DNA of 64,000 nt from a virus. The stretch is from positions 1-64,000 of the IMG/VR virus record IMGVR_UViG_3300037258_001099; one strand, 5' to 3'. The translations under genes were made by a program, and so were the position numbers. The notes under the pieces were generated by a model. It was not told where the DNA came from. It saw only the letters and a program-made list of their open reading frames with translations, and ran no database searches. Below are positions 10,710-42,728 of this stretch, piece after piece (the first letter of the stretch is position 1; each line of letters opens with the position of its first letter).

Positions 10710-10859
10710 CAGTCTATTAGAATAATGTTTTGCCCTGCAACGCCTCCCTGATGTTCGAGCATCGGATGAAAAGCGTCCAGGGCCGACGAAAGAAAGTGAG
10801 TTCTTCCGTATGGATACTTTACCCCAGATCTGTTCTTGCCATCAAGGGGCGGTGGCTTC

Positions 10860-11300
10860 ATGAATAAAGGTAGGGATAATCAGTACTTACTTGTTGTCAG
10901 TGATGAGTATGGAAGTAGATCCACCCTTTTGGGTGTTTACACTACCCCTGTGTGGGATATGCACACAGTAGCTGAGACTGATGGTTTTCTGCGAGACGCG
11001 AAGTCTTTGAGGCTTACTGAGGATGAGCGAGATACCATTGTGAATTACATGGCAGCTTATCCACAGGAGGGAGATGAAGTTAGCGGTACGGGTGGAGCAC
11101 GCAAGGTTCGTTTCCCTGGTAAAGGTAAAGGGAAGAGTGGTGGATATAGAGTCTTTACGTTTTATAGCGGAGAGGATATCCCAGTGTTCCTCATGAGAAT
11201 TATATCAAAGGGCGATAGGGAGAATTTAACGCCAGCACAGCACAATGACTTAAAGGCAGACCTGTCGATGATTGTTAAAGGATACCGAGAAAGGAAATAG
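10860..11300 (+). CDS. RelE/HigB-type toxin
   Basis: 146 aa; ATG at 10860 chosen over 10836 because GGGGCGGTGG precedes it. The C-terminal 95 residues (LTEDERDTIVNYMAAYPQ, GTGGARKVRFPGKG, GGYRVFTFYS, DIPVFLMRIISKGDRENLTP) match the RelE/HigB fold of ribosome-dependent mRNA endonucleases, with the basic R-K-x-R and the G-G-x-R strand. An N-terminal extension of about 45 residues is unusual. Toxin-first order followed by an HTH antitoxin is typical of HigBA. Confidence 0.8.
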   Translation: MNKGRDNQYLLVVSDEYGSRSTLLGVYTTPVWDMHTVAETDGFLRDAKSLRLTEDERDTIVNYMAAYPQEGDEVSGTGGARKVRFPGKGKGKSGGYRVFTFYSGEDIPVFLMRIISKGDRENLTPAQHNDLKADLSMIVKGYRERK

Positions 11301-11303
11301 TAC

Positions 11304-11735
11304 ATGAGCAACCTTGATGCTTGTATTGGCTGGGAAAAGAGTAGCCATAATCCCAAGATAAGGACAGGAATAACTTTTCGCGGAGATCTCTTCATAAGAG
11401 CCGCTCAAATTATGTATACGAGGAGGGAATCGATGTATCCATTGGGCTTTAAACAGGGTCTAATAGATAGCATTACAGATATCCGTGCCTCTCTGCTCGA
11501 TTATGGGGACCATGCCTATGATTTTGGAGTTCCCACTGAGATCAATACTGTAAGAATTGCTCGGAGCCTGGGACTCACTCAGGAGCAGTTTGCAACCACA
11601 TTCCGTATTCCCCTTGAAATACTCCAAGCATGGGAGACAGGTCAGCAGGTACCTGACGATGCTATGAAAGCATATATCTCGTCCATTGATCGTAATCCGA
11701 ATGCTGTACTACGGTCTTTGACAGGTGAGGAGTAA
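11304..11735 (+). CDS. HigA-type HTH antitoxin
   Basis: 143 aa. AGAAAGGAAA inside the toxin end precedes the ATG at 11304; a second ATG at 11433 with GAGGAGGGAA could give a shorter antitoxin. C-terminal XRE HTH: IARSLGLTQEQFATTFRIPLEILQAWETG, typical of HigA-2 antitoxins that bind the toxin with the N-terminus and DNA with the C-terminus. Overlaps no gene but is only 3 nt from the toxin. Likely autoregulates the 10704 promoter. Confidence 0.8.
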   Translation: MSNLDACIGWEKSSHNPKIRTGITFRGDLFIRAAQIMYTRRESMYPLGFKQGLIDSITDIRASLLDYGDHAYDFGVPTEINTVRIARSLGLTQEQFATTFRIPLEILQAWETGQQVPDDAMKAYISSIDRNPNAVLRSLTGEE

Positions 11736-12721: not shown

Positions 12722-13534
12722 ATGGCACGACACTATAGCGAAAGCCGGAAGAAGGCCAAGTCAAATTCCGGTAATCAAAATCCAATACCGGAAAATTCTA
12801 ATCTCTCTCACGTTATTGCAGGCAAGCTGCTTCCTATCGCTGCTGGCCCACCCAGGACAGAAGAGGATAAGCACGACTTTTTCGTTAATCTTGTGCGTCT
12901 GCACTGCGGCCAAAGACTTACTGCTGTAGAATGTGCAAACAGAATGGGTGTCTCTGAGCGCTCTATACGATCCTACATGGCAGAGCCGCTCTACAAAGAG
13001 ATCCAGGAGCAACTCATCGCCGACTCCAAGCAAAGCGGTCACTTAATGATCTCCGAGGTCATCCCATCCTCTATTGATGGCTTGTTCTCTATCGCCCAGG
13101 ACACGAATGTCTCACCCTTTGTGCGCTACAAATGCTACGCAGAGTTGCTCAATTATGCCGGATATAATGAGCCGCAAGAAGAGAGTAGAACTGACTCACG
13201 CTCCACGGTCAGCCAATTTATGAAAGAAGTGGAAGCCAAGCGCCAGCAGCAGCAGCCTGTCTATAACATCCAGAACCTCAACATCACCCCAGACTTAACA
13301 GATAAAGGAAAAGTCGTTGACTCCATTCCAGAGAACATTCCTCCCGAATTGCACCAGTACTATTCCCAGGTTTTGCCTGGCGGAAAGCTCCCAGAGAGCT
13401 TCAGAACTGAGCACGAACCATCGGTAAGTGGTATAATCAGAAAGAGGAATGGCAATCCAAAGATAGTGGAGCAATACACCAATGCAGAAGAAAGTGTCCC
13501 AGAAGAGCATCCCCAAGAAGCGGGGGATGAATAG
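12722..13534 (+). CDS. HTH protein, possible small terminase subunit
   Basis: 270 aa; ATG at 12722 (AAAGGTAA upstream) preferred to frames starting further left. Residues 60-85 hold a helix-turn-helix (LTAVECANRMGVSERSIRSYM), followed by SPFVRYKCYAELLNYAGY, the kind of DNA-binding helix plus helical repeat seen in small terminase subunits of Gram-positive phages. Glutamine-rich coil near residue 180. It lies 31 kb from the large subunit, which is unusual, so a regulator is an alternative. Codons 15-25 contain copy 1 of the CCGGTAA palindrome (12764-12797). Confidence 0.5.
   Translation: MARHYSESRKKAKSNSGNQNPIPENSNLSHVIAGKLLPIAAGPPRTEEDKHDFFVNLVRLHCGQRLTAVECANRMGVSERSIRSYMAEPLYKEIQEQLIADSKQSGHLMISEVIPSSIDGLFSIAQDTNVSPFVRYKCYAELLNYAGYNEPQEESRTDSRSTVSQFMKEVEAKRQQQQPVYNIQNLNITPDLTDKGKVVDSIPENIPPELHQYYSQVLPGGKLPESFRTEHEPSVSGIIRKRNGNPKIVEQYTNAEESVPEEHPQEAGDE
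12764..12797. repeat. CCGGTAA palindrome, copy 1 (in coding frame)
   Basis: TTCCGGTA (12766-12773) and TACCGGAA (12786-12793) form an 8-bp stem with flanks resembling the copies at 21783 and 52794. It adds the peptide SGNQNPIPEN to the protein, strikingly like SGNEESLPEN produced by copy 2 in an unrelated gene. Confidence 0.65.
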
Positions 13535-13970
13535 TGAGCAACAGCAGCGGCTCGTAGAACAGTACCTTGATACTAAGTCCACGTTACCAAGTAAGCAGGA
13601 TATCGTCCTTGTAGATTCATTCCAGCCAGTACGCAACCGCACATCACGAGAACAGGAAGAGCGCGTCTTTGCCATTCTCTGGGACATGATTTCGGAAACA
13701 TCTGTTCCCGAAGAGCACATTCTGATGAAATACAAAACTGACTACCTTGTAGGAAAAGCGAAGGCTGAGTACGGTCTACTCTGGTACTACGAGGTCATTG
13801 CTGCCTACTCAGCTTACCGCAGATCTCATGTCTCCCTACTCAATCTCATTGAGTGGAAGTGCTACGCGGATGAGAGCATGCGCCAGCTCTTCAGGCGATA
13901 CAAGAGCGAGCAAGAACTCTCATCCATTTTCCGTTGGCCTTCTAAAACGTCAATCCACGACGAAAACTAA
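13482..13970 (+). CDS. Hypothetical protein (162 aa)
   Basis: ATG at 13482 has GTGGAG upstream and overlaps the previous gene by 53 nt; an ATG at 13527 gives only an 8-nt overlap but has a poor site. Basic N-terminus, then a helical acidic body with WYYEVIAAYSAYRRSH. Follows the possible small terminase gene; function unknown. Ends before the terminator at 14050. Confidence 0.7.
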   Translation: MQKKVSQKSIPKKRGMNSEQQQRLVEQYLDTKSTLPSKQDIVLVDSFQPVRNRTSREQEERVFAILWDMISETSVPEEHILMKYKTDYLVGKAKAEYGLLWYYEVIAAYSAYRRSHVSLLNLIEWKCYADESMRQLFRRYKSEQELSSIFRWPSKTSIHDEN

Positions 13971-14049
13971 TACCAGGAGCGCCAAGCTTTTCATCTACAG
14001 TGCTTCCCTTTGGTGCTGAGAAGCTCAACAGAGCGTGTAGAGAACAAAA

Positions 14050-14094
14050 AGAGAGATCGGTATGCAACACGATACACCGATCTCTCTTTGCTTT
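14050..14094 (+). terminator. Intrinsic terminator
   Basis: AGAGAGATCGGT (14050-14061) pairs perfectly over 12 bp with 14076-14087, followed by TTGCTTTC. Ends the 12722-13970 unit. Confidence 0.8.
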
Positions 14095-14133
14095 CTAGAA
14101 CGCTTGTTACAGGCGAATCTCATCAGATTGTTA

Positions 14134-14139: not shown

Positions 14140-14197
14140 CTCATGATTATTGCATCGTTAGAGTAGTGCTACACAGGACGTGTGGAGGAGAGAGAGT

Positions 14198-15292
14198 ATG
14201 CAATCGTTCTACCGTTTTTGTTTGGATTTGCGGAAGATTTCGTGGTGGTGTCGTCTTCTTATTGTTCTTGGATCATTTCTCCTATTTGAAGGGCTTGTTG
14301 TGTACATGACAACGATTGGCAGGGATCGTGGTGTGGCTTCTTTGCTGATCATTACTGGTATTTTGGCGGCCTTGCTTTTCTCCTGGAAGAAAGCGCTTGC
14401 CATTGAGTGGGGATTACTCTTGGTCTATCTTTGGATCAATGTCTCCATCAAGGGATGGTGCTATGACCAAGTTGTGGCTTTTTTATCAGGAACCTTTCTT
14501 GATTTTTTTATTATAGCGACCATTGGATATTTTCGTCATGGCTTTGAGTGCTTAGAGCAAGCTATAGCAAAAGAGCAGAGCCTAGCCAATGTCCATCATG
14601 AGCTCCGCTCACCGCTCACTGCTATTATTGGTTCTTTGGATATCATGCGAGATCATGGCCGTCAGATCAGTGAGCAGGAACACGACATGTTTCTTGATTA
14701 TGCGGTCTATGCTAGTGAAGAGCTTACAAGAATTGCTGATAATGTGCTTGATGCAATTCGTGCGGATTCTGATGTAAGCATTCCCTGGATCAAGCAATTT
14801 GACCTCTGCTCTGTCGTTTCTGATATACTGCGTCGTGCTCATAGTGACGGCCATTGCATCCATATCGACATTCCAGAGGATATCGTGGTGTATGGCGATT
14901 CTCAGCATGTGGGCCAAGTTATGCGGAACCTGCTCTCTAATTGCTTTAAGTATTCGCCAGATGGCAGTCCTGTCTTTGTGCGTGTCTGGCAGGATGATAT
15001 TTATAGTTATGTTTGCGTGAGAGATAAGGGGCCTGGTATTCGTGCCGAGCATCTCCCCTTGATCTTTCAAAAATTTTCTCGTCTTGATCATGATATTGCG
15101 GGTCCAATACGAGGGATAGGGCTTGGTCTCTACATTTGTCGAAGACTTATTGAGAATATGGATGGTCGCATCTGGGTTGAGAGTGCTGGCATATCTGGGG
15201 ATGGGAGCAGCTTTTATTTTACGCTTCCTCGTATACAATCCAAGAAAATTTGTGTTCCTCTTTCTCCTGTGGCAGAATACAGAAACATTTGA
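14198..15292 (+). CDS. Membrane sensor histidine kinase, orphan
   Basis: 364 aa; ATG at 14198 with AGGAG upstream. Four to five membrane helices fill residues 15-110, with almost no extracytoplasmic domain. HisKA follows with the phospho-acceptor in HHELRSPLTAI (His near 134), then N box MRNLLSNCFKYSP, G1 DKGPGI and G2 GIGLGLYICRRL. All catalytic boxes are intact. No response regulator is in the window, so it must signal to a host regulator. The gene directly behind it encodes a leader-type peptide, the layout of peptide-sensing kinases (HPK10-like), and suggests peptide signalling or control of peptide production. Confidence 0.9.
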   Translation: MQSFYRFCLDLRKISWWCRLLIVLGSFLLFEGLVVYMTTIGRDRGVASLLIITGILAALLFSWKKALAIEWGLLLVYLWINVSIKGWCYDQVVAFLSGTFLDFFIIATIGYFRHGFECLEQAIAKEQSLANVHHELRSPLTAIIGSLDIMRDHGRQISEQEHDMFLDYAVYASEELTRIADNVLDAIRADSDVSIPWIKQFDLCSVVSDILRRAHSDGHCIHIDIPEDIVVYGDSQHVGQVMRNLLSNCFKYSPDGSPVFVRVWQDDIYSYVCVRDKGPGIRAEHLPLIFQKFSRLDHDIAGPIRGIGLGLYICRRLIENMDGRIWVESAGISGDGSSFYFTLPRIQSKKICVPLSPVAEYRNI

Positions 15293-15322
15293 TCAAACAA
15301 ATGTTGAAGGAGAAGAATTAAC

Positions 15323-15565
15323 ATGAATGACTACGAGTTAACAGATAGTGAACTAGAGCAGGTTCATGGTGCCTGTTGTGGTGGCGGGGTTGTTGGTAGT
15401 ATTGTAGAGACTGCTGGTGGTATTGTTGGTATCCCAGCTAGCGTAGGCCTTGGTCTTGTTGGTGTCCCAGTCATAGGTACTATCACCGGAGTTGCAACAG
15501 ATACCAGCACCTCTACAAGCCTGGCTAGTCTTTCTCTGGGTAGTGTAGGGTTGAAGCTGCTCTAG
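15323..15565 (+). CDS. Double-glycine-type leader peptide, bacteriocin-like
   Basis: 80 aa, AAGGAG before the ATG. N-terminal YELTDSELEQVHGA is a classic leader for C39-peptidase ABC export (E-L-x-x-x-E-L-x-x-V-x-G-[GA]). The core starts CCGGG and is Gly/Val/Ile-rich with several GxxxG spacings (GIVGIPASVGLGLVG), then a Ser/Thr tail; this suits a membrane-inserting class II bacteriocin or a modified peptide. No exporter or modifying enzyme is nearby, so host machinery would be needed. Follows the kinase by 30 nt and is probably cotranscribed. Confidence 0.75.
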   Translation: MNDYELTDSELEQVHGACCGGGVVGSIVETAGGIVGIPASVGLGLVGVPVIGTITGVATDTSTSTSLASLSLGSVGLKLL

Positions 15566-15646
15566 CTTTGACGCTTGTTCTACACTGGATGAAGATATCG
15601 AATGTGATATTTTCTAAGCAACAGTTGTCGTCGGAAATGCACACAA

Positions 15647-15684
15647 AAAAGCAGGACACCTTGTTGGCTCAGGGTCCTGCTTTT
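15647..15684. terminator. Bidirectional terminator
   Basis: AAAAGCAGGAC (15647-15657) and GTCCTGCTTTT (15674-15684) form a strong stem with A and T tracts on both sides, between the convergent peptide gene and the gene ending at 15698. Confidence 0.85.
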
Positions 15685-15697
15685 GCGATTCTATTCC

Positions 15698-20572: not shown

Positions 20573-20627
20573 AGAAGCCGCTATACTGTCTCACAAAGGG
20601 CGATGGAGACAAGGTATAGCGGCTTCT
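20573..20627. terminator. Strong bidirectional terminator
   Basis: AGAAGCCGCTATAC (20573-20586) pairs over 14 bp with 20614-20627, and TGTCTC/GAGACA extends the stem. Between convergent genes. Confidence 0.85.
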
Positions 20628-20635
20628 TCTGCTAG

Positions 20636-20863
20636 TTAGAGGATACCGAGAATACTATTTTCGGACTGATCAAAGACACTGCTTAAATTTAAATTAAAAG
20701 CACTGTGCTGCTGCTCTGACTGACCATAGAACACAGGACCCCTGCGCCCGCGACGTCTGTCATCATCATCGTCACATCGGTCCCTGTCTCTGTCGCATTC
20801 GCCACCCCAGGCACCATTCACTACCACCAACTCTGCATCTGAGAGTTCAATTTCATTAAACAT
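20636..20863 (-). CDS. Second double-glycine-type leader peptide
   Basis: 75 aa, AGAAAGGCAA before the ATG. Leader EIELSDAELVVVNGAWGG mirrors the leader at 15323 (YELTDSELEQVHGA). The core is wholly different: a block of alternating Asp and Arg (CDRDRDRCDDDDDRRRG) with two cysteines, then polar residues. Two unrelated cores behind one leader type suggest a shared exporter or maturation protein in the host. Role open: bacteriocin, pheromone or RiPP precursor. Confidence 0.65.
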   Translation of the reverse strand: MFNEIELSDAELVVVNGAWGGECDRDRDRCDDDDDRRRGRRGPVFYGQSEQQHSAFNLNLSSVFDQSENSILGIL

Positions 20864-20931: not shown

Positions 20932-21088
20932 GGTTTTGTGAGTATCCTGAGAAAGGAAATTCACTTGAGATAATTGCACGTGCTTGGAAACACGTTACAT
21001 TACTATTGTACATACTAGTACAAACGACATGCCTCTATGAATAATAACTGCACTAGATATTATCCCATCGTAGTATATCCTAGCAGTC

Positions 21089-21116
21089 AAAAAAAAGTGG
21101 CCGTAAATCCGACCAC
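21089..21116 (-). terminator. Intrinsic terminator, leftward
   Basis: GTGGTC.../...GGCCAC stem with TTTTTTT behind it on the minus strand, 8 nt after the stop at 21124. Ends the long operon 24045-21124. Confidence 0.75.
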
Positions 21117-21123
21117 CTTCTTG

Positions 21124-27066: not shown

Positions 27067-27873
27067 CTATTTACTCAACACTGCATAGACATCGGTGATT
27101 TCCTGATCAATCTCGGTGGCCTGTGCTTCCAGTTCGATTGCATCTGCAACCTTCTTGAGCTGAGACATCTCTTTTGGAGAAGATTGATTGATAGCAGGAA
27201 TGTAGACTTTCTTGCTATTAGCCTTGAAGCGCTTTGCAATATCCATTGCTTGCTTTTGACCACGAGCTTCTACAACTAACAGCTTGCTTACACATTCTGC
27301 TCTAGCAACCAGCTCATTTCTGCGCTGGCCGTTATCGATGATCCACTCTGCGCTGTCATGGAACTGACTTATAACACAGATATCACGAGTATTTATATAG
27401 TCTAGGATCTCATCGGTGAGCTCAATACCATCGAGCCCTAAGCTGCATACTACGAGCACACACCCACCAGCAGCGATGTGAGCTCGAACCATTGGCATAT
27501 CTTCTCCGATGAGCCCACAAACCAGCAGATTGTGCGTCCCTTCTGCTGCTAGACTATGTGCCGCTGCCTCACTTGCTGCAATGGCTGATTTGCTTGAATT
27601 ACGAGAAATCGCAACTGCCACAAATGGAAGCTCTGTGAGGATACCCTGATCCCCAATAGTGTGGACTGTGGTATTTCTGAATTTCGCTGTGCCGTACTCA
27701 CGCTTTGCAGGAGCAGTCTCTTCAACCACTTCAGTCTCAACTCTTACTGATGGCCCTGTGCTAATGACTTCATTAACTTTCATCTCGGCTACCTCTTCGG
27801 GTGTTGGAACAAACTCAGGAGTAACAATTTCGACGCCAAGGTCAAGAGCTGTTTGAATCATTTCGTTAGACAT
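27067..27873 (-). CDS. Divergent DprA/SLOG-family protein
   Basis: 268 aa, AGAAAGGAAA before the ATG. Residues 80-240 follow the DprA Rossmann order: FVAVAISRNSSKSAIAAS (first strand and S-R loop), LVCGLIGEDMPMVRAHIAAGG, VLVVCSLGLDG, then QRRNELVARAECVSKLLVVEA and KKVYIPAIN. The usual G-S-R is changed to I-S-R and the N-terminus is a 75-residue acidic extension. DprA itself loads RecA on single strands; other SLOG proteins bind signalling nucleotides. Paired with a standard DprA-like gene at 28697 and a macrodomain gene between them. Confidence 0.65.
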   Translation of the reverse strand: MSNEMIQTALDLGVEIVTPEFVPTPEEVAEMKVNEVISTGPSVRVETEVVEETAPAKREYGTAKFRNTTVHTIGDQGILTELPFVAVAISRNSSKSAIAASEAAAHSLAAEGTHNLLVCGLIGEDMPMVRAHIAAGGCVLVVCSLGLDGIELTDEILDYINTRDICVISQFHDSAEWIIDNGQRRNELVARAECVSKLLVVEARGQKQAMDIAKRFKANSKKVYIPAINQSSPKEMSQLKKVADAIELEAQATEIDQEITDVYAVLSK

Positions 27874-28696: not shown

Positions 28697-29374
28697 TTAA
28701 TCGATTCTACTGCGCTTGATAGCTTCTGTGATTGTTGGGTAGTCCTGCTTTCCCCTGAAGCTATGACAGAAGCCTGATCCTACGTAATCAGTAGCTAGTT
28801 TTTTGAGGCCTGCGTATCGATCAGGATGTGCCTCACAATCGCTCTTGACGGGTATAGGGATATAGATAGGTTTCTTCTGCTGCACTGCATAGCGAGCGGT
28901 AATCATGGTGCCACTATCTCTTCCATCAGGCTTTAGCTCAGCTTGCACAGGAATGACGGCATCTGAGAGGTCTACAATGATCTGATCCCTATTTGTGAAC
29001 CGTTTCTTTGCACGAGCACTGTCATACTCAGGTGTATCGTACTCAGTGCAGAGAAGACCGCCCTTTTTCACAATCTCACGTGCCAGCGATTCATTTTTAG
29101 CAGGATATATTCGATTAATAGGAGTACCCAGTACTGCGATAGTTAGCCCGCCTGCTGCAATGGCGCCTTTGTGAGCTGCTGTGTCAATGCCCTCTGCTAG
29201 GCCTGAGACAATCACAAATCCAGCTTTCACAAACGCGGTAGCTATGGCTGCTGTTATCTGCCTACCACGCTCTGTGCAATTGCGTGATCCTACAATCGCA
29301 ACAGAAGACATGTCGATGATCTCTAGGTCTCCTTCGACAAACATTTCTCTTCCACAGATTATTGCTTTGTCCAT
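28697..29374 (-). CDS. DprA-like protein (SLOG superfamily)
   Basis: 225 aa, AGAAAGGAA before the ATG. Canonical DprA signature: VAIVGSRNCTERG, FVIVSGLAEGIDTAAHKGAI, GLTIAVLGT, NRIYPAKN, FTNRDQIIVDLSDAVI and SGTMITARYAV. It lacks the N-terminal SAM and C-terminal winged-helix parts of bacterial DprA. Free-standing domains of this type are frequent in phages and near defence genes. Likely binds a nucleotide or single-stranded DNA. Acts possibly with the divergent copy at 27067. Confidence 0.85.
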   Translation of the reverse strand: MDKAIICGREMFVEGDLEIIDMSSVAIVGSRNCTERGRQITAAIATAFVKAGFVIVSGLAEGIDTAAHKGAIAAGGLTIAVLGTPINRIYPAKNESLAREIVKKGGLLCTEYDTPEYDSARAKKRFTNRDQIIVDLSDAVIPVQAELKPDGRDSGTMITARYAVQQKKPIYIPIPVKSDCEAHPDRYAGLKKLATDYVGSGFCHSFRGKQDYPTITEAIKRSRID

Positions 29375-39889: not shown

Positions 39890-41215
39890 ATGAAAACGAT
39901 AATTTCTGCAAAGCTCAAACTGAATACAACTCCAGAACAGTTTGCACAACTGCGCACGACTCAACTGGCATATCGTGACTCTCTCAATTTTGTGAGTCAG
40001 TATGCTTTTGAGCATGGCAAAACAAGTAGCAGGATTGCTTTGCATAAAGCCAATTATGGTGAGATACGTACTCGTTTTCACTTGCCTTCTCAAATGGCTT
40101 GCAGTGTTTTTATACAGGTAGGTGCGACCTATAAAGGTCTCTGGACCAAGGTCAAGAAGAATGCAGCAGACCGCAAATCTGGTCGAACCAAGAAACGCTA
40201 CAAGGGACTTGATCAAGCTCCTAAGTACGTTTCTCCTACCTTGACCTACCAACACGGCAAGGATTACAGTTTCAAGACAGACAACCACGTTAGCGTCTTG
40301 ACCTTGGAAGGGCGCGTGGTTGTTCCCTATACGGGTTATAACCAGCATGTTTCCTTGATTCAAAAGGGAGCTGAGATCGGAGCTGCCAAGCTCTGGTACG
40401 ACAAACCCAAGAAGCAATTCTATTTGCTGGTGAGTCTTGAGATTGAGATAGCCGACCCAACACCAGAAACCCATAAAGGGATAGCGGGTGTGGATGTGGG
40501 CGTTCGCTACTTGGCAGTATCCAGCAACACACGAGGGGAATGTTCTTTCCACACAGGGAAGAGTGTTGTCCCCAAAGCGAACCATTATGCGAGACTGAGA
40601 AAGCGTCTGCAACGAAAAGGCACTCGCTCTGCTACCCGCCGTTTGGTGGTGATTAGCGGACGAGAGAGACGGTTGAAAGCTGACGCCAATCATGTAGTCT
40701 CCAAACGCATTGTGACCCGATATCCAAACAGCCTGATCGGCTTGGAGCAATTGACAGATATCCGAGAACGAACCCCACGCAAGCATGGCAAGAAGGCTAG
40801 CAGGAAGCAGAGGCGTGCTAACGCTACTTATTCCAAATGGTCGTTTGCTGAGTTGCAGAGCATGATAGCCTATAAAGCTCTCATAGCTGGGAGCATGGCT
40901 ATCAAGGTGGATGCCAACTACACCAGCAAAGCTTGTCCCGTGTGTGGGCATACCTGTGGTGCTAATCGTCCCAACAAGGGCCTGCTGTTTATCTGTCAGA
41001 ATTGTCACTACACGCTCCATGCTGATCTAGTTGGTGCTAGGAATATCGCAATGCGAACGTTGCTCGTCCGGCAGGACTGGTCGAGTACGGGTACTTTGTC
41101 AGAGTGCCCTGATGTGTCGAGCGTTGAAGCCAAAGCAGCACGTCTTTCGAGATATGCTGAGTTGCGGTGGAGCTTAGACACAAGCTCATCCCCTTCTAGG
41201 GGATTGAGTTTCTGA
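39890..41215 (+). CDS. tnpB: TnpB RNA-guided nuclease (IS605 OrfB)
   Basis: 441 aa. N-terminal OrfB_IS605 helices, RuvC-like core with Asp 202 (AGVDVGVRYLAV), Glu 286 (GLEQLTDIRE) and Asp 379 (LHADLVGARNIA), and a zinc finger CPVC (349-352) / CQNC (369-372). All three catalytic residues are present, so it should be an active guide-RNA-directed DNA nuclease that keeps the element at its donor site. A C-terminal tail of about 50 residues overlaps the putative guide-RNA scaffold. Confidence 0.93.
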   Translation: MKTIISAKLKLNTTPEQFAQLRTTQLAYRDSLNFVSQYAFEHGKTSSRIALHKANYGEIRTRFHLPSQMACSVFIQVGATYKGLWTKVKKNAADRKSGRTKKRYKGLDQAPKYVSPTLTYQHGKDYSFKTDNHVSVLTLEGRVVVPYTGYNQHVSLIQKGAEIGAAKLWYDKPKKQFYLLVSLEIEIADPTPETHKGIAGVDVGVRYLAVSSNTRGECSFHTGKSVVPKANHYARLRKRLQRKGTRSATRRLVVISGRERRLKADANHVVSKRIVTRYPNSLIGLEQLTDIRERTPRKHGKKASRKQRRANATYSKWSFAELQSMIAYKALIAGSMAIKVDANYTSKACPVCGHTCGANRPNKGLLFICQNCHYTLHADLVGARNIAMRTLLVRQDWSSTGTLSECPDVSSVEAKAARLSRYAELRWSLDTSSSPSRGLSF

Positions 41216-41957: not shown

Positions 41958-42728
41958 TTATGATACTAATTTGATAGTCCAGAAGTCACTTGATAAATAA
42001 GGATTTACAAGCATCTGAAAGGGTATATAGAGATATCCTTTGTCACCAAATGATGTTCCCCACGAGTTTCTCACGATAAACCATTGATTGGATGTATTGT
42101 ATCCGACCACTGTCATACAATGCCCTCCGAGCACCTGCTCTCCCCACTGAGGCATCGGAACAATACCAGTTTGCTCTACTTGCTGACTCTCAAAGCTTTC
42201 ATAGACGGTCACACCAAAGACAAATGGACTTTCAGAGGCAAGACATCCGAGCATTTGAATGAGGCTCAGGTTATTGATGCGTTGATACTGGACTGCCTTT
42301 GTGAGAAGAGCATCAGTGTAAGCCTGTTCTGGCGGCTTTACGGTAAACTGGCTAATATCGTAGGGCCAATCAGTCTCAGAGCACGCGCCCTGGCTGTTTA
42401 CACTCCGAATGCCGTCACGAATAGCCGCTCCACTATCACTACTAACGGTCCCTTCCTCGGCTCTTTCATTGTAGTAGATAAAGAGTCGGGAAGGCGCAAA
42501 AGCAGTGATCTTTTGCTTCATCTGGTCAAATTCGATGGCTCCCGCAATAGCATTGGCTGTACAGCTTCCAAGTTGCCCCTGGTCAACGACAGGTGGGCAG
42601 TAGGGACGTAGATCAATACTTGGCGGGAGTACTGTCATACCCACCAGAGGTGCGCTGTAGAGGTGATCATGCCAATCAGGACGATCGGGAACCCAACCTT
42701 TTGCGTATTTACCTTTTGACATACTCAT
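41958..42728 (-). CDS. Papain-like cysteine protease (C1A)
   Basis: 256 aa; ATG 42728 or 42722 after AGAAGGAG. Gln 50 and Cys 56 in VVDQGQLGSCTANA, His 203 in GGHCMTVVGY and Asn 221 in VRNSWGTSFG form the full papain tetrad. There is no signal peptide, and the short N-terminus (WVPDRPDWHDHLY) is like that of phage and bacterial C1A enzymes without an inhibitory propeptide. Possible roles: capsid or tail maturation, or attack on host proteins. Confidence 0.88.
   Translation of the reverse strand: MSMSKGKYAKGWVPDRPDWHDHLYSAPLVGMTVLPPSIDLRPYCPPVVDQGQLGSCTANAIAGAIEFDQMKQKITAFAPSRLFIYYNERAEEGTVSSDSGAAIRDGIRSVNSQGACSETDWPYDISQFTVKPPEQAYTDALLTKAVQYQRINNLSLIQMLGCLASESPFVFGVTVYESFESQQVEQTGIVPMPQWGEQVLGGHCMTVVGYNTSNQWFIVRNSWGTSFGDKGYLYIPFQMLVNPYLSSDFWTIKLVS

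What the first reader, a model, noticed from the sequence alone, without database searches (positions are those of the whole stretch)
14198..15565. Orphan sensor kinase coupled to a double-glycine leader peptide
A membrane kinase without a large external domain followed at 30 nt by a peptide with E-L-x-x-x-E-L-x-x-V-x-G-A leader and GxxxG-rich core. This is the logic of peptide quorum sensing or bacteriocin control, but on a phage and without regulator or exporter. It could let the phage sense lysogens or arm the lysogen against rivals.
Basis: partly seen in the sequence, partly recalled or inferred. Interest (0 to 1): 0.78.

Follow-up and report, generated by a model that had tools for sequence, protein, structure and literature searches.

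The report
Phage exporter-leader peptides, one with kinase
A phage of unknown host carries two small genes whose peptides bear the tag that bacteria use to export toxins or signals, one of them paired with a sensor kinase, but carries neither the exporter nor the kinase's partner, so it would have to borrow both from its host.

Summary
At 14198-15292 lies an intact 364-aa HisKA/HATPase_c kinase with four predicted membrane helices and very short loops; 30 nt later lies an 80-aa ORF (15323-15565) with the leader ELTDSELEQVHGA. Both have good ribosome-binding sites; two terminator hairpins bound the pair; the peptide ORF has phage-like codon bias. 'GxxxG-rich' is only what the glycine content predicts.

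New here: a search of the whole 137-kb phage record with the leader motif found a second peptide with an unrelated core (20636-20863, minus strand, ELSDAELVVVNGA) in its own terminator-bounded unit without a kinase. The motif occurs 0 times in 100 shuffles, and the corresponding DNA pattern, in 796 bacterial genomes, hit only NHLP/Nif11-type precursors (3 of 3), one near a C39 exporter. So the leader is very probably a C39 export signal.

The record holds no response regulator, ABC exporter or LanC. The kinase is not of the AgrC/ComD (HPK10) type. No orthologue of either gene was found, so co-occurrence in relatives could not be tested; the host is unknown.

Best reading: lysogenic-conversion cargo peptides that use a host exporter; the kinase feeds a host regulator. 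Phage quorum sensing is possible but unproven.

The parts
14041..14096 (.). upstream terminator hairpin (near-perfect, A-rich/T-rich arms, could work both ways) that separates the unit from gene 13482-13970
   Evidence: (I2): -25.5 kcal/mol, z -5.3
14184..14190 (+). ribosome-binding site GGAGGAG of the kinase gene
   Evidence: sequence
14198..15292 (+). orphan sensor histidine kinase, 364 aa, 4 predicted TM helices, no extracellular domain
   Evidence: HisKA, HATPase_c; TM; core like HK853, residues 125-346
15307..15313 (+). ribosome-binding site AAGGAGA of the peptide gene
   Evidence: sequence
15323..15565 (+). peptide 1: 17-aa leader MNDYELTDSELEQVHGA plus 63-aa Gly-rich hydrophobic core beginning CCGGG
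15645..15685 (+). downstream terminator hairpin with U-rich 3' arm closing the two-gene unit
   Evidence: -20.3 kcal/mol, z -3.6
20636..20863 (-). peptide 2: leader MFNEIELSDAELVVVNGA plus 57-aa core WGGECDRDRDRCDDDDDRRRGRRG..., unrelated to core 1
   Evidence: codon score 0.21
20573..20627 (-). terminator-like hairpin directly after peptide 2
   Evidence: -33.7 kcal/mol, z -6.9
21084..21122 (-). terminator upstream of peptide 2 (end of the preceding unit)
   Evidence: -17.6 kcal/mol, z -5.2

Best explanation
The phage carries two exporter-less precursor peptides. Both have the short E-L-[ST]-D-x-E-L-x-x-V-x-G-A leader that C39-type peptidase/ABC exporters recognise; the cores differ. Shown: two real small genes with a common leader, each in its own terminator-bounded unit; peptide 1 follows an intact orphan kinase with 4 predicted TM helices; no exporter and no response regulator in the record. 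Inferred: the units are expressed in the carrier cell (lysogenic-conversion cargo, 'morons'); a host C39 exporter cuts after Gly-Ala and secretes the cores; core 1 (glycine-rich, hydrophobic, S/T-rich tail) acts at membranes as a bacteriocin-like peptide; the kinase senses the peptide or the membrane state it causes and phosphorylates a host response regulator, coupling peptide release to a host response (for example tolerance or exporter expression).
For: Leader motif twice in the record, 0 of 100 shuffles, 0 in 416 kb background. The DNA pattern of the leader hits 3 places in 796 genomes (one match for the reversed control pattern), all in RiPP-type precursors at their cleavage site: two are NHLP leaders by TIGR03793 over cut-off, the third is Nif11-like (below cut-off) with an NHLM C39-ABC exporter (TIGR03796, 992.7 bits) about 4 kb away. 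Coding bias of both ORFs. Terminator-bounded units. Intact kinase. No regulator, ABC or LanC in the record. Precedent for leader-directed export of varied cargo: microcin V system (PMC10231218). Precedent for a phage with signal peptide and kinase but no response regulator: phiCDHM1 (PMC3901668).
Against: Host unknown, so a host C39 exporter is assumed. No homologue of either peptide or of the kinase's TM part, so no conservation evidence for the pair. No family model recognises either peptide over its cut-off. Core 2 is highly charged and does not look like a pore former. No bacteriocin immunity gene was identified. No clear sigma-70 promoter was found before the kinase. The record may be incomplete.
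Confidence: 0.45

Rival explanations
1. Phage-level peptide signalling: exported core 1 is an autoinducer read by the adjacent kinase, so that lysogen density feeds into a host regulator and from there into lysis-lysogeny or host behaviour.
For: Co-directional pair with a 30-nt gap inside one terminator-bounded unit; kinase has no room for another extracellular sensor domain; phiCDHM1 agr precedent.
Against: Kinase is HisKA/HATPase_c, not HPK10; no response regulator in the record; the second leader peptide has no kinase; a 63-aa hydrophobic core is long for a pheromone; none of 33 other viral-contig kinases has such a neighbour.
Confidence: 0.2
2. The two genes share a transcript but not a function: the kinase is a separate piece of acquired cargo that tunes host physiology, and peptide 1 is an independent bacteriocin-like cargo.
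For: Peptide 2 shows that leader peptides stand alone in this phage; generic kinase core.
Against: Tight spacing and shared terminators.
Confidence: 0.25
3. The leaders are fortuitous: peptide 1 is a small membrane protein (for example a kinase-modulating or holin-like peptide) and stays in the cell.
For: Hydrophobic 19-residue window at +1.99 in the core; the same leader-like string occurs inside unrelated phage structural-type proteins.
Against: Two N-terminal leaders with the same motif and different cores in one phage; 0 in shuffles; in bacteria the pattern is specific to RiPP precursors.
Confidence: 0.1

Closest known systems
Clostridioides difficile phage phiCDHM1 agr3 locus (AgrD-AgrB-AgrC without AgrA), PMC3901668
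   Same: Phage-borne precursor peptide with a membrane histidine kinase and no response regulator; authors propose that a host regulator is used
   Different: Has its own processing/export protein AgrB, an AgrC-type receptor and clear bacterial orthologues; here a C39-type leader, a HisKA kinase, no processing protein and no orthologues
SP-beta prophage sublancin 168 cluster (sunA/sunT/sunS/sunI), PMC8270828
   Same: Prophage-encoded leader peptide that arms the lysogen; exported with leader cleavage by SunT
   Different: SP-beta carries exporter, modification and immunity genes; here none were found, and a kinase is attached
NHLP / Nif11-like leader RiPP precursors with NHLM C39-ABC exporters (TIGR03793, TIGR03798, TIGR03796)
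   Same: Same kind of leader end, ELTDDELxxVxGG, found with the phage-derived pattern
   Different: Those have 60-90-aa leaders; the phage peptides have 17-18-aa leaders and match neither model
Lacticin 481 / type-A lantibiotic leaders (PF04604, NF040664)
   Same: Weak leader similarity, cleavage after Gly-Ala (own knowledge)
   Different: 13 bits against cut-offs of 21.7 and 46; no LanC-like gene in the record
Class II microcin export (microcin V type I secretion), PMC10231218
   Same: One leader-reading exporter can export varied cargo peptides
   Different: Exporter is encoded with the microcin; here it must be in the host

Membership tests
HisKA-type sensor histidine kinase | HisKA and HATPase_c domains over Pfam cut-off, phospho-acceptor His and ATP-binding motifs present | tested here: met
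   (41.8 and 92.1 bits); alignment keeps H134, N244/N248, D276/G278/G280, G308/G310
Peptide-pheromone receptor kinases (HPK10: AgrC, ComD) | HPK10-type catalytic domain (HATPase_c_5) without a classical HisKA, polytopic sensor | tested here: not met
   only HisKA, HATPase_c and a weak HATPase_c_2 up to E = 1
Complete peptide quorum-sensing two-component system | cognate response regulator | tested here: not met
   no PF00072 match at E <= 10 in six frames of the record; all 14 control genomes match
Complete peptide quorum-sensing or bacteriocin system | dedicated C39/ABC exporter | tested here: not met
   no ABC_tran; the only C39-like stretch lies in a TM-anchored ORF at the far end of the record, outside any ABC protein, at 21.9-24.5 bits
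C39 (double-glycine type) leader peptides | N-terminal leader with spaced hydrophobic residues ending GG/GA/GS | tested here: met
   specificity shown
C39 (double-glycine type) leader peptides | cleavage after GA and export of the core | not testable with these tools
   needs biochemistry or mass spectrometry
Lacticin 481 / type-A lantibiotic | family model over cut-off | tested here: not met
   13.5 and 13.1 bits, cut-offs 21.7 and 46
Lanthipeptide biosynthesis | LanC/LanM cyclase in the cluster | tested here: not met
   no LANC_like match in the record
NHLP or Nif11-like leader precursors | TIGR03793/TIGR03798 match | tested here: not met
   no match for either phage peptide at E <= 1
Class IIb bacteriocin (lactobin A/cerein 7B, TIGR03949) | family model match | tested here: not met
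   no match
Lysogenic-conversion moron | self-contained unit with its own terminator, unrelated to neighbouring phage modules | tested here: met
Lysogenic-conversion moron | own promoter active in the lysogen | tested here: inconclusive
   one search gives no + strand promoter-like site before the kinase; TATAAT occurs at about 14133 but without a good -35
Orthologous kinase-peptide pair in relatives | pair kept together | tested here: inconclusive
   no orthologue of either found; absence of the pair among distant viral kinases says little

The most novel reading that the evidence does not exclude
A phage that communicates or competes with 'cargo-only' peptides: it brings export-tagged peptides and a matching membrane receptor, and uses the host's exporter and the host's response regulator, so that lysogens can sense one another or mark themselves at a cost of under 1.5 kb.
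Probability: 0.15. Interest if true: 0.8.

Novelty: new variant of a known kind. Interest (0 to 1): 0.52.

Why it matters
Phage-encoded bacteriocins and one phage agr locus are known, but they bring their own processing machinery. A phage with two different export-tagged peptides, no exporter and an orphan kinase would show that phages can use host secretion and signalling hardware with minimal genes. Such cargo is invisible to searches for biosynthetic gene clusters that look for the exporter or modification enzymes. The leader motif used here offers a way to look for more.

Tried and rejected
(1) Relatives of the kinase and of both peptides by pattern scan in IMG/VR: none; kinase in GTDB contigs: only three generic kinases at 27-28%; in 398 Bacillota genomes only the catalytic core matches, 33-39%, never the TM part. 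(2) Peptides by tblastn: peptide 1 none in phages and plasmids, peptide 2 none in plasmids; the low-complexity filter may hide peptide 1. (3) HK survey of viral contigs with an alignment query: 33 loci, none with an adjacent leader peptide. The first version of this scan used a regular expression with wrong spacing and was repeated correctly. (4) The same spacing mistake made the first shuffle test miscount the loose class; one search replaces it. (5) Leader pattern scans of viral contigs: 61 and 6 matches, none a credible leader peptide. (6) C39-like domain of the record (135383-136792) as processing enzyme: rejected as exporter, because it sits after a TM segment in a protein without ABC parts, with a weak glucosaminidase-like stretch; a wall-acting role is more likely. 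(7) AlphaFold of kinase and peptide 1 from single sequences: mean pLDDT 43 and 44, not usable. (8) Host identification: TnpB closest to Deinococcus plasmids at 56%, RNR and primase only distantly like known phages; no host can be named. (9) TerL alignment too divergent to search with.

Full report
What is there. The window is the first 64 kb of a 136,990-base virus contig. It is a tailed phage: terminase large subunit, portal and major head protein match PHROGs, and there is a D5-type primase. At 14198-15292 (+) lies a 364-aa histidine kinase with HisKA and HATPase_c over their Pfam cut-offs, the catalytic boxes in place, and a core similar to HK853 and other solved kinases from residue 125 on. 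Before that come four hydrophobic segments with loops of two to seven residues, so there is no extracellular sensor domain. After 30 nt follows an 80-aa ORF, 15323-15565: MNDYELTDSELEQVHGA|CCGGGVVGSIVETAGGIVGIPASVGLGLVGVPVIGTITGVATDTSTSTSLASLSLGSVGLKLL.

Is the peptide a gene? Its ribosome-binding site is good (AAGGAGA), and its codon score against the phage's own large genes is 0.29 bits per codon, among the highest of all small ORFs in the record; the two other forward frames are strongly negative. The pair is enclosed by hairpins at 14041-14096 (z -5.3) and 15645-15685 (z -3.6), both with T-rich ends. It is therefore a self-contained two-gene unit, the usual build of lysogenic-conversion cargo. 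A promoter could not be shown by the consensus scan.

Is the leader more than chance? It occurs twice, and not once in 100 local codon shuffles nor in 416 kb of unrelated held sequence. The second hit was not sought: 20636-20863 (-), MFNEIELSDAELVVVNGA|WGGECDRDRDRCDDDDDRRRGRRGPVFYGQSEQQHSAFNLNLSSVFDQSENSILGIL. It has coding bias (0.21), its own terminator-like hairpin (z -6.9) and lies after the terminator of the previous unit (z -5.2). Its core is unrelated to core 1, and no kinase adjoins it. A common leader on different cores is the signature of precursors that share an export or processing machine.

A specificity control. The two phage leaders were turned into a degenerate DNA pattern (GG allowed as well as GA) and searched in 796 bacterial genomes, 398 from each of two phyla. 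It hit three places in two genomes; the reversed control pattern hit one. All three are the cleavage ends of RiPP-type precursors: two NHLP leaders (TIGR03793, 88.9 and 62.5 bits against 50.9) and one Nif11-like leader (27.3 bits, below its cut-off of 32.3), the latter about 4 kb from an NHLM C39 peptidase/ABC exporter (TIGR03796, 992.7 bits) with its HlyD partner. So this leader end belongs to C39-exported precursors wherever it could be checked. The phage peptides are not NHLP or Nif11 members: their leaders are only 17-18 aa and match neither model. In 2.9 million viral contigs the pattern gave no credible second example. The same string does occur inside longer, structural-type phage proteins, so the motif alone, away from an N terminus, means little.

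What is missing. In six frames of the record there is no response regulator (all 14 control genomes match), no ABC ATPase and no LanC-like cyclase. One C39-like stretch exists at record 135878-136243 (-), but in a 469-aa protein with a TM segment and a weak glucosaminidase-like stretch, not in an exporter. The record may be incomplete.

How it most likely works. The peptides are export-tagged cargo; a host C39 exporter would cut after Gly-Ala and secrete the cores. That leader-directed export tolerates varied cargo is shown for microcin V (PMC10231218). Core 1, glycine-rich and hydrophobic, looks membrane-active; its bacteriocin role is an inference. The kinase would need a host response regulator, as proposed for the phage agr locus of phiCDHM1, which has peptide, processing protein and kinase but no regulator (PMC3901668). 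Whether the kinase senses the peptide is open. Against a pheromone receptor: it is not an HPK10 kinase, and peptide 2 does without it. For a link: position, short spacing, shared terminators.

What could not be tested. No orthologue of the kinase's sensor part or of either peptide was found in IMG/VR, GTDB contigs (pattern scan, kinase only), INPHARED, PLSDB or 398 Bacillota genomes (kinase only). The 33 other viral-contig kinases lack such a neighbour, but they are distant. The host is unknown; a TnpB copy is 56% identical to Deinococcus plasmid copies, which is only a hint. 'GxxxG-rich' is not supported beyond composition.

Verdict. Novelty: a new variant of phage-borne peptide cargo, without its machinery and twice in one genome.

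Noticed in passing
record 73880-87646 (L005:9880 to L006:3646), +: One ORF of 4588 aa in the structural region, by size and place probably a tape-measure protein, which would mean an extremely long tail. Inferred from size only.
   Followed up: no
L008:11383-12792 (-): 469-aa protein: TM segment, C39-like cysteine peptidase stretch, then a weak glucosaminidase-like stretch; likely a wall-acting enzyme.
   Followed up: partly
L006:7787-10897 (+): Ribonucleotide reductase large subunit interrupted by an intein (PF14890 inside the barrel domain).
   Followed up: no
window 39890-41215 (+) and L006:17330-18556 (-): Two TnpB/OrfB-type genes; the first is 56% identical to copies on Deinococcus plasmids.
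   Followed up: partly
window 10836-11735 (+): RelE-like toxin and helix-turn-helix protein side by side, a likely toxin-antitoxin pair upstream of the kinase region.
   Followed up: partly
window 27067-27873 and 28697-29374 (-): Two DprA-like (DNA_processg_A / SLOG) proteins close together in a phage.
   Followed up: no
window 41958-42728 (-): Papain-family (C1) cysteine protease encoded by the phage.
   Followed up: no
L005-L008: Actin-like protein (ALP_N/MreB-like_C), resolvase, Uma2 endonuclease, Rad52 and a GmrSD_N protein: hints of a plasmid-like or temperate life style and of defence cargo.
   Followed up: no
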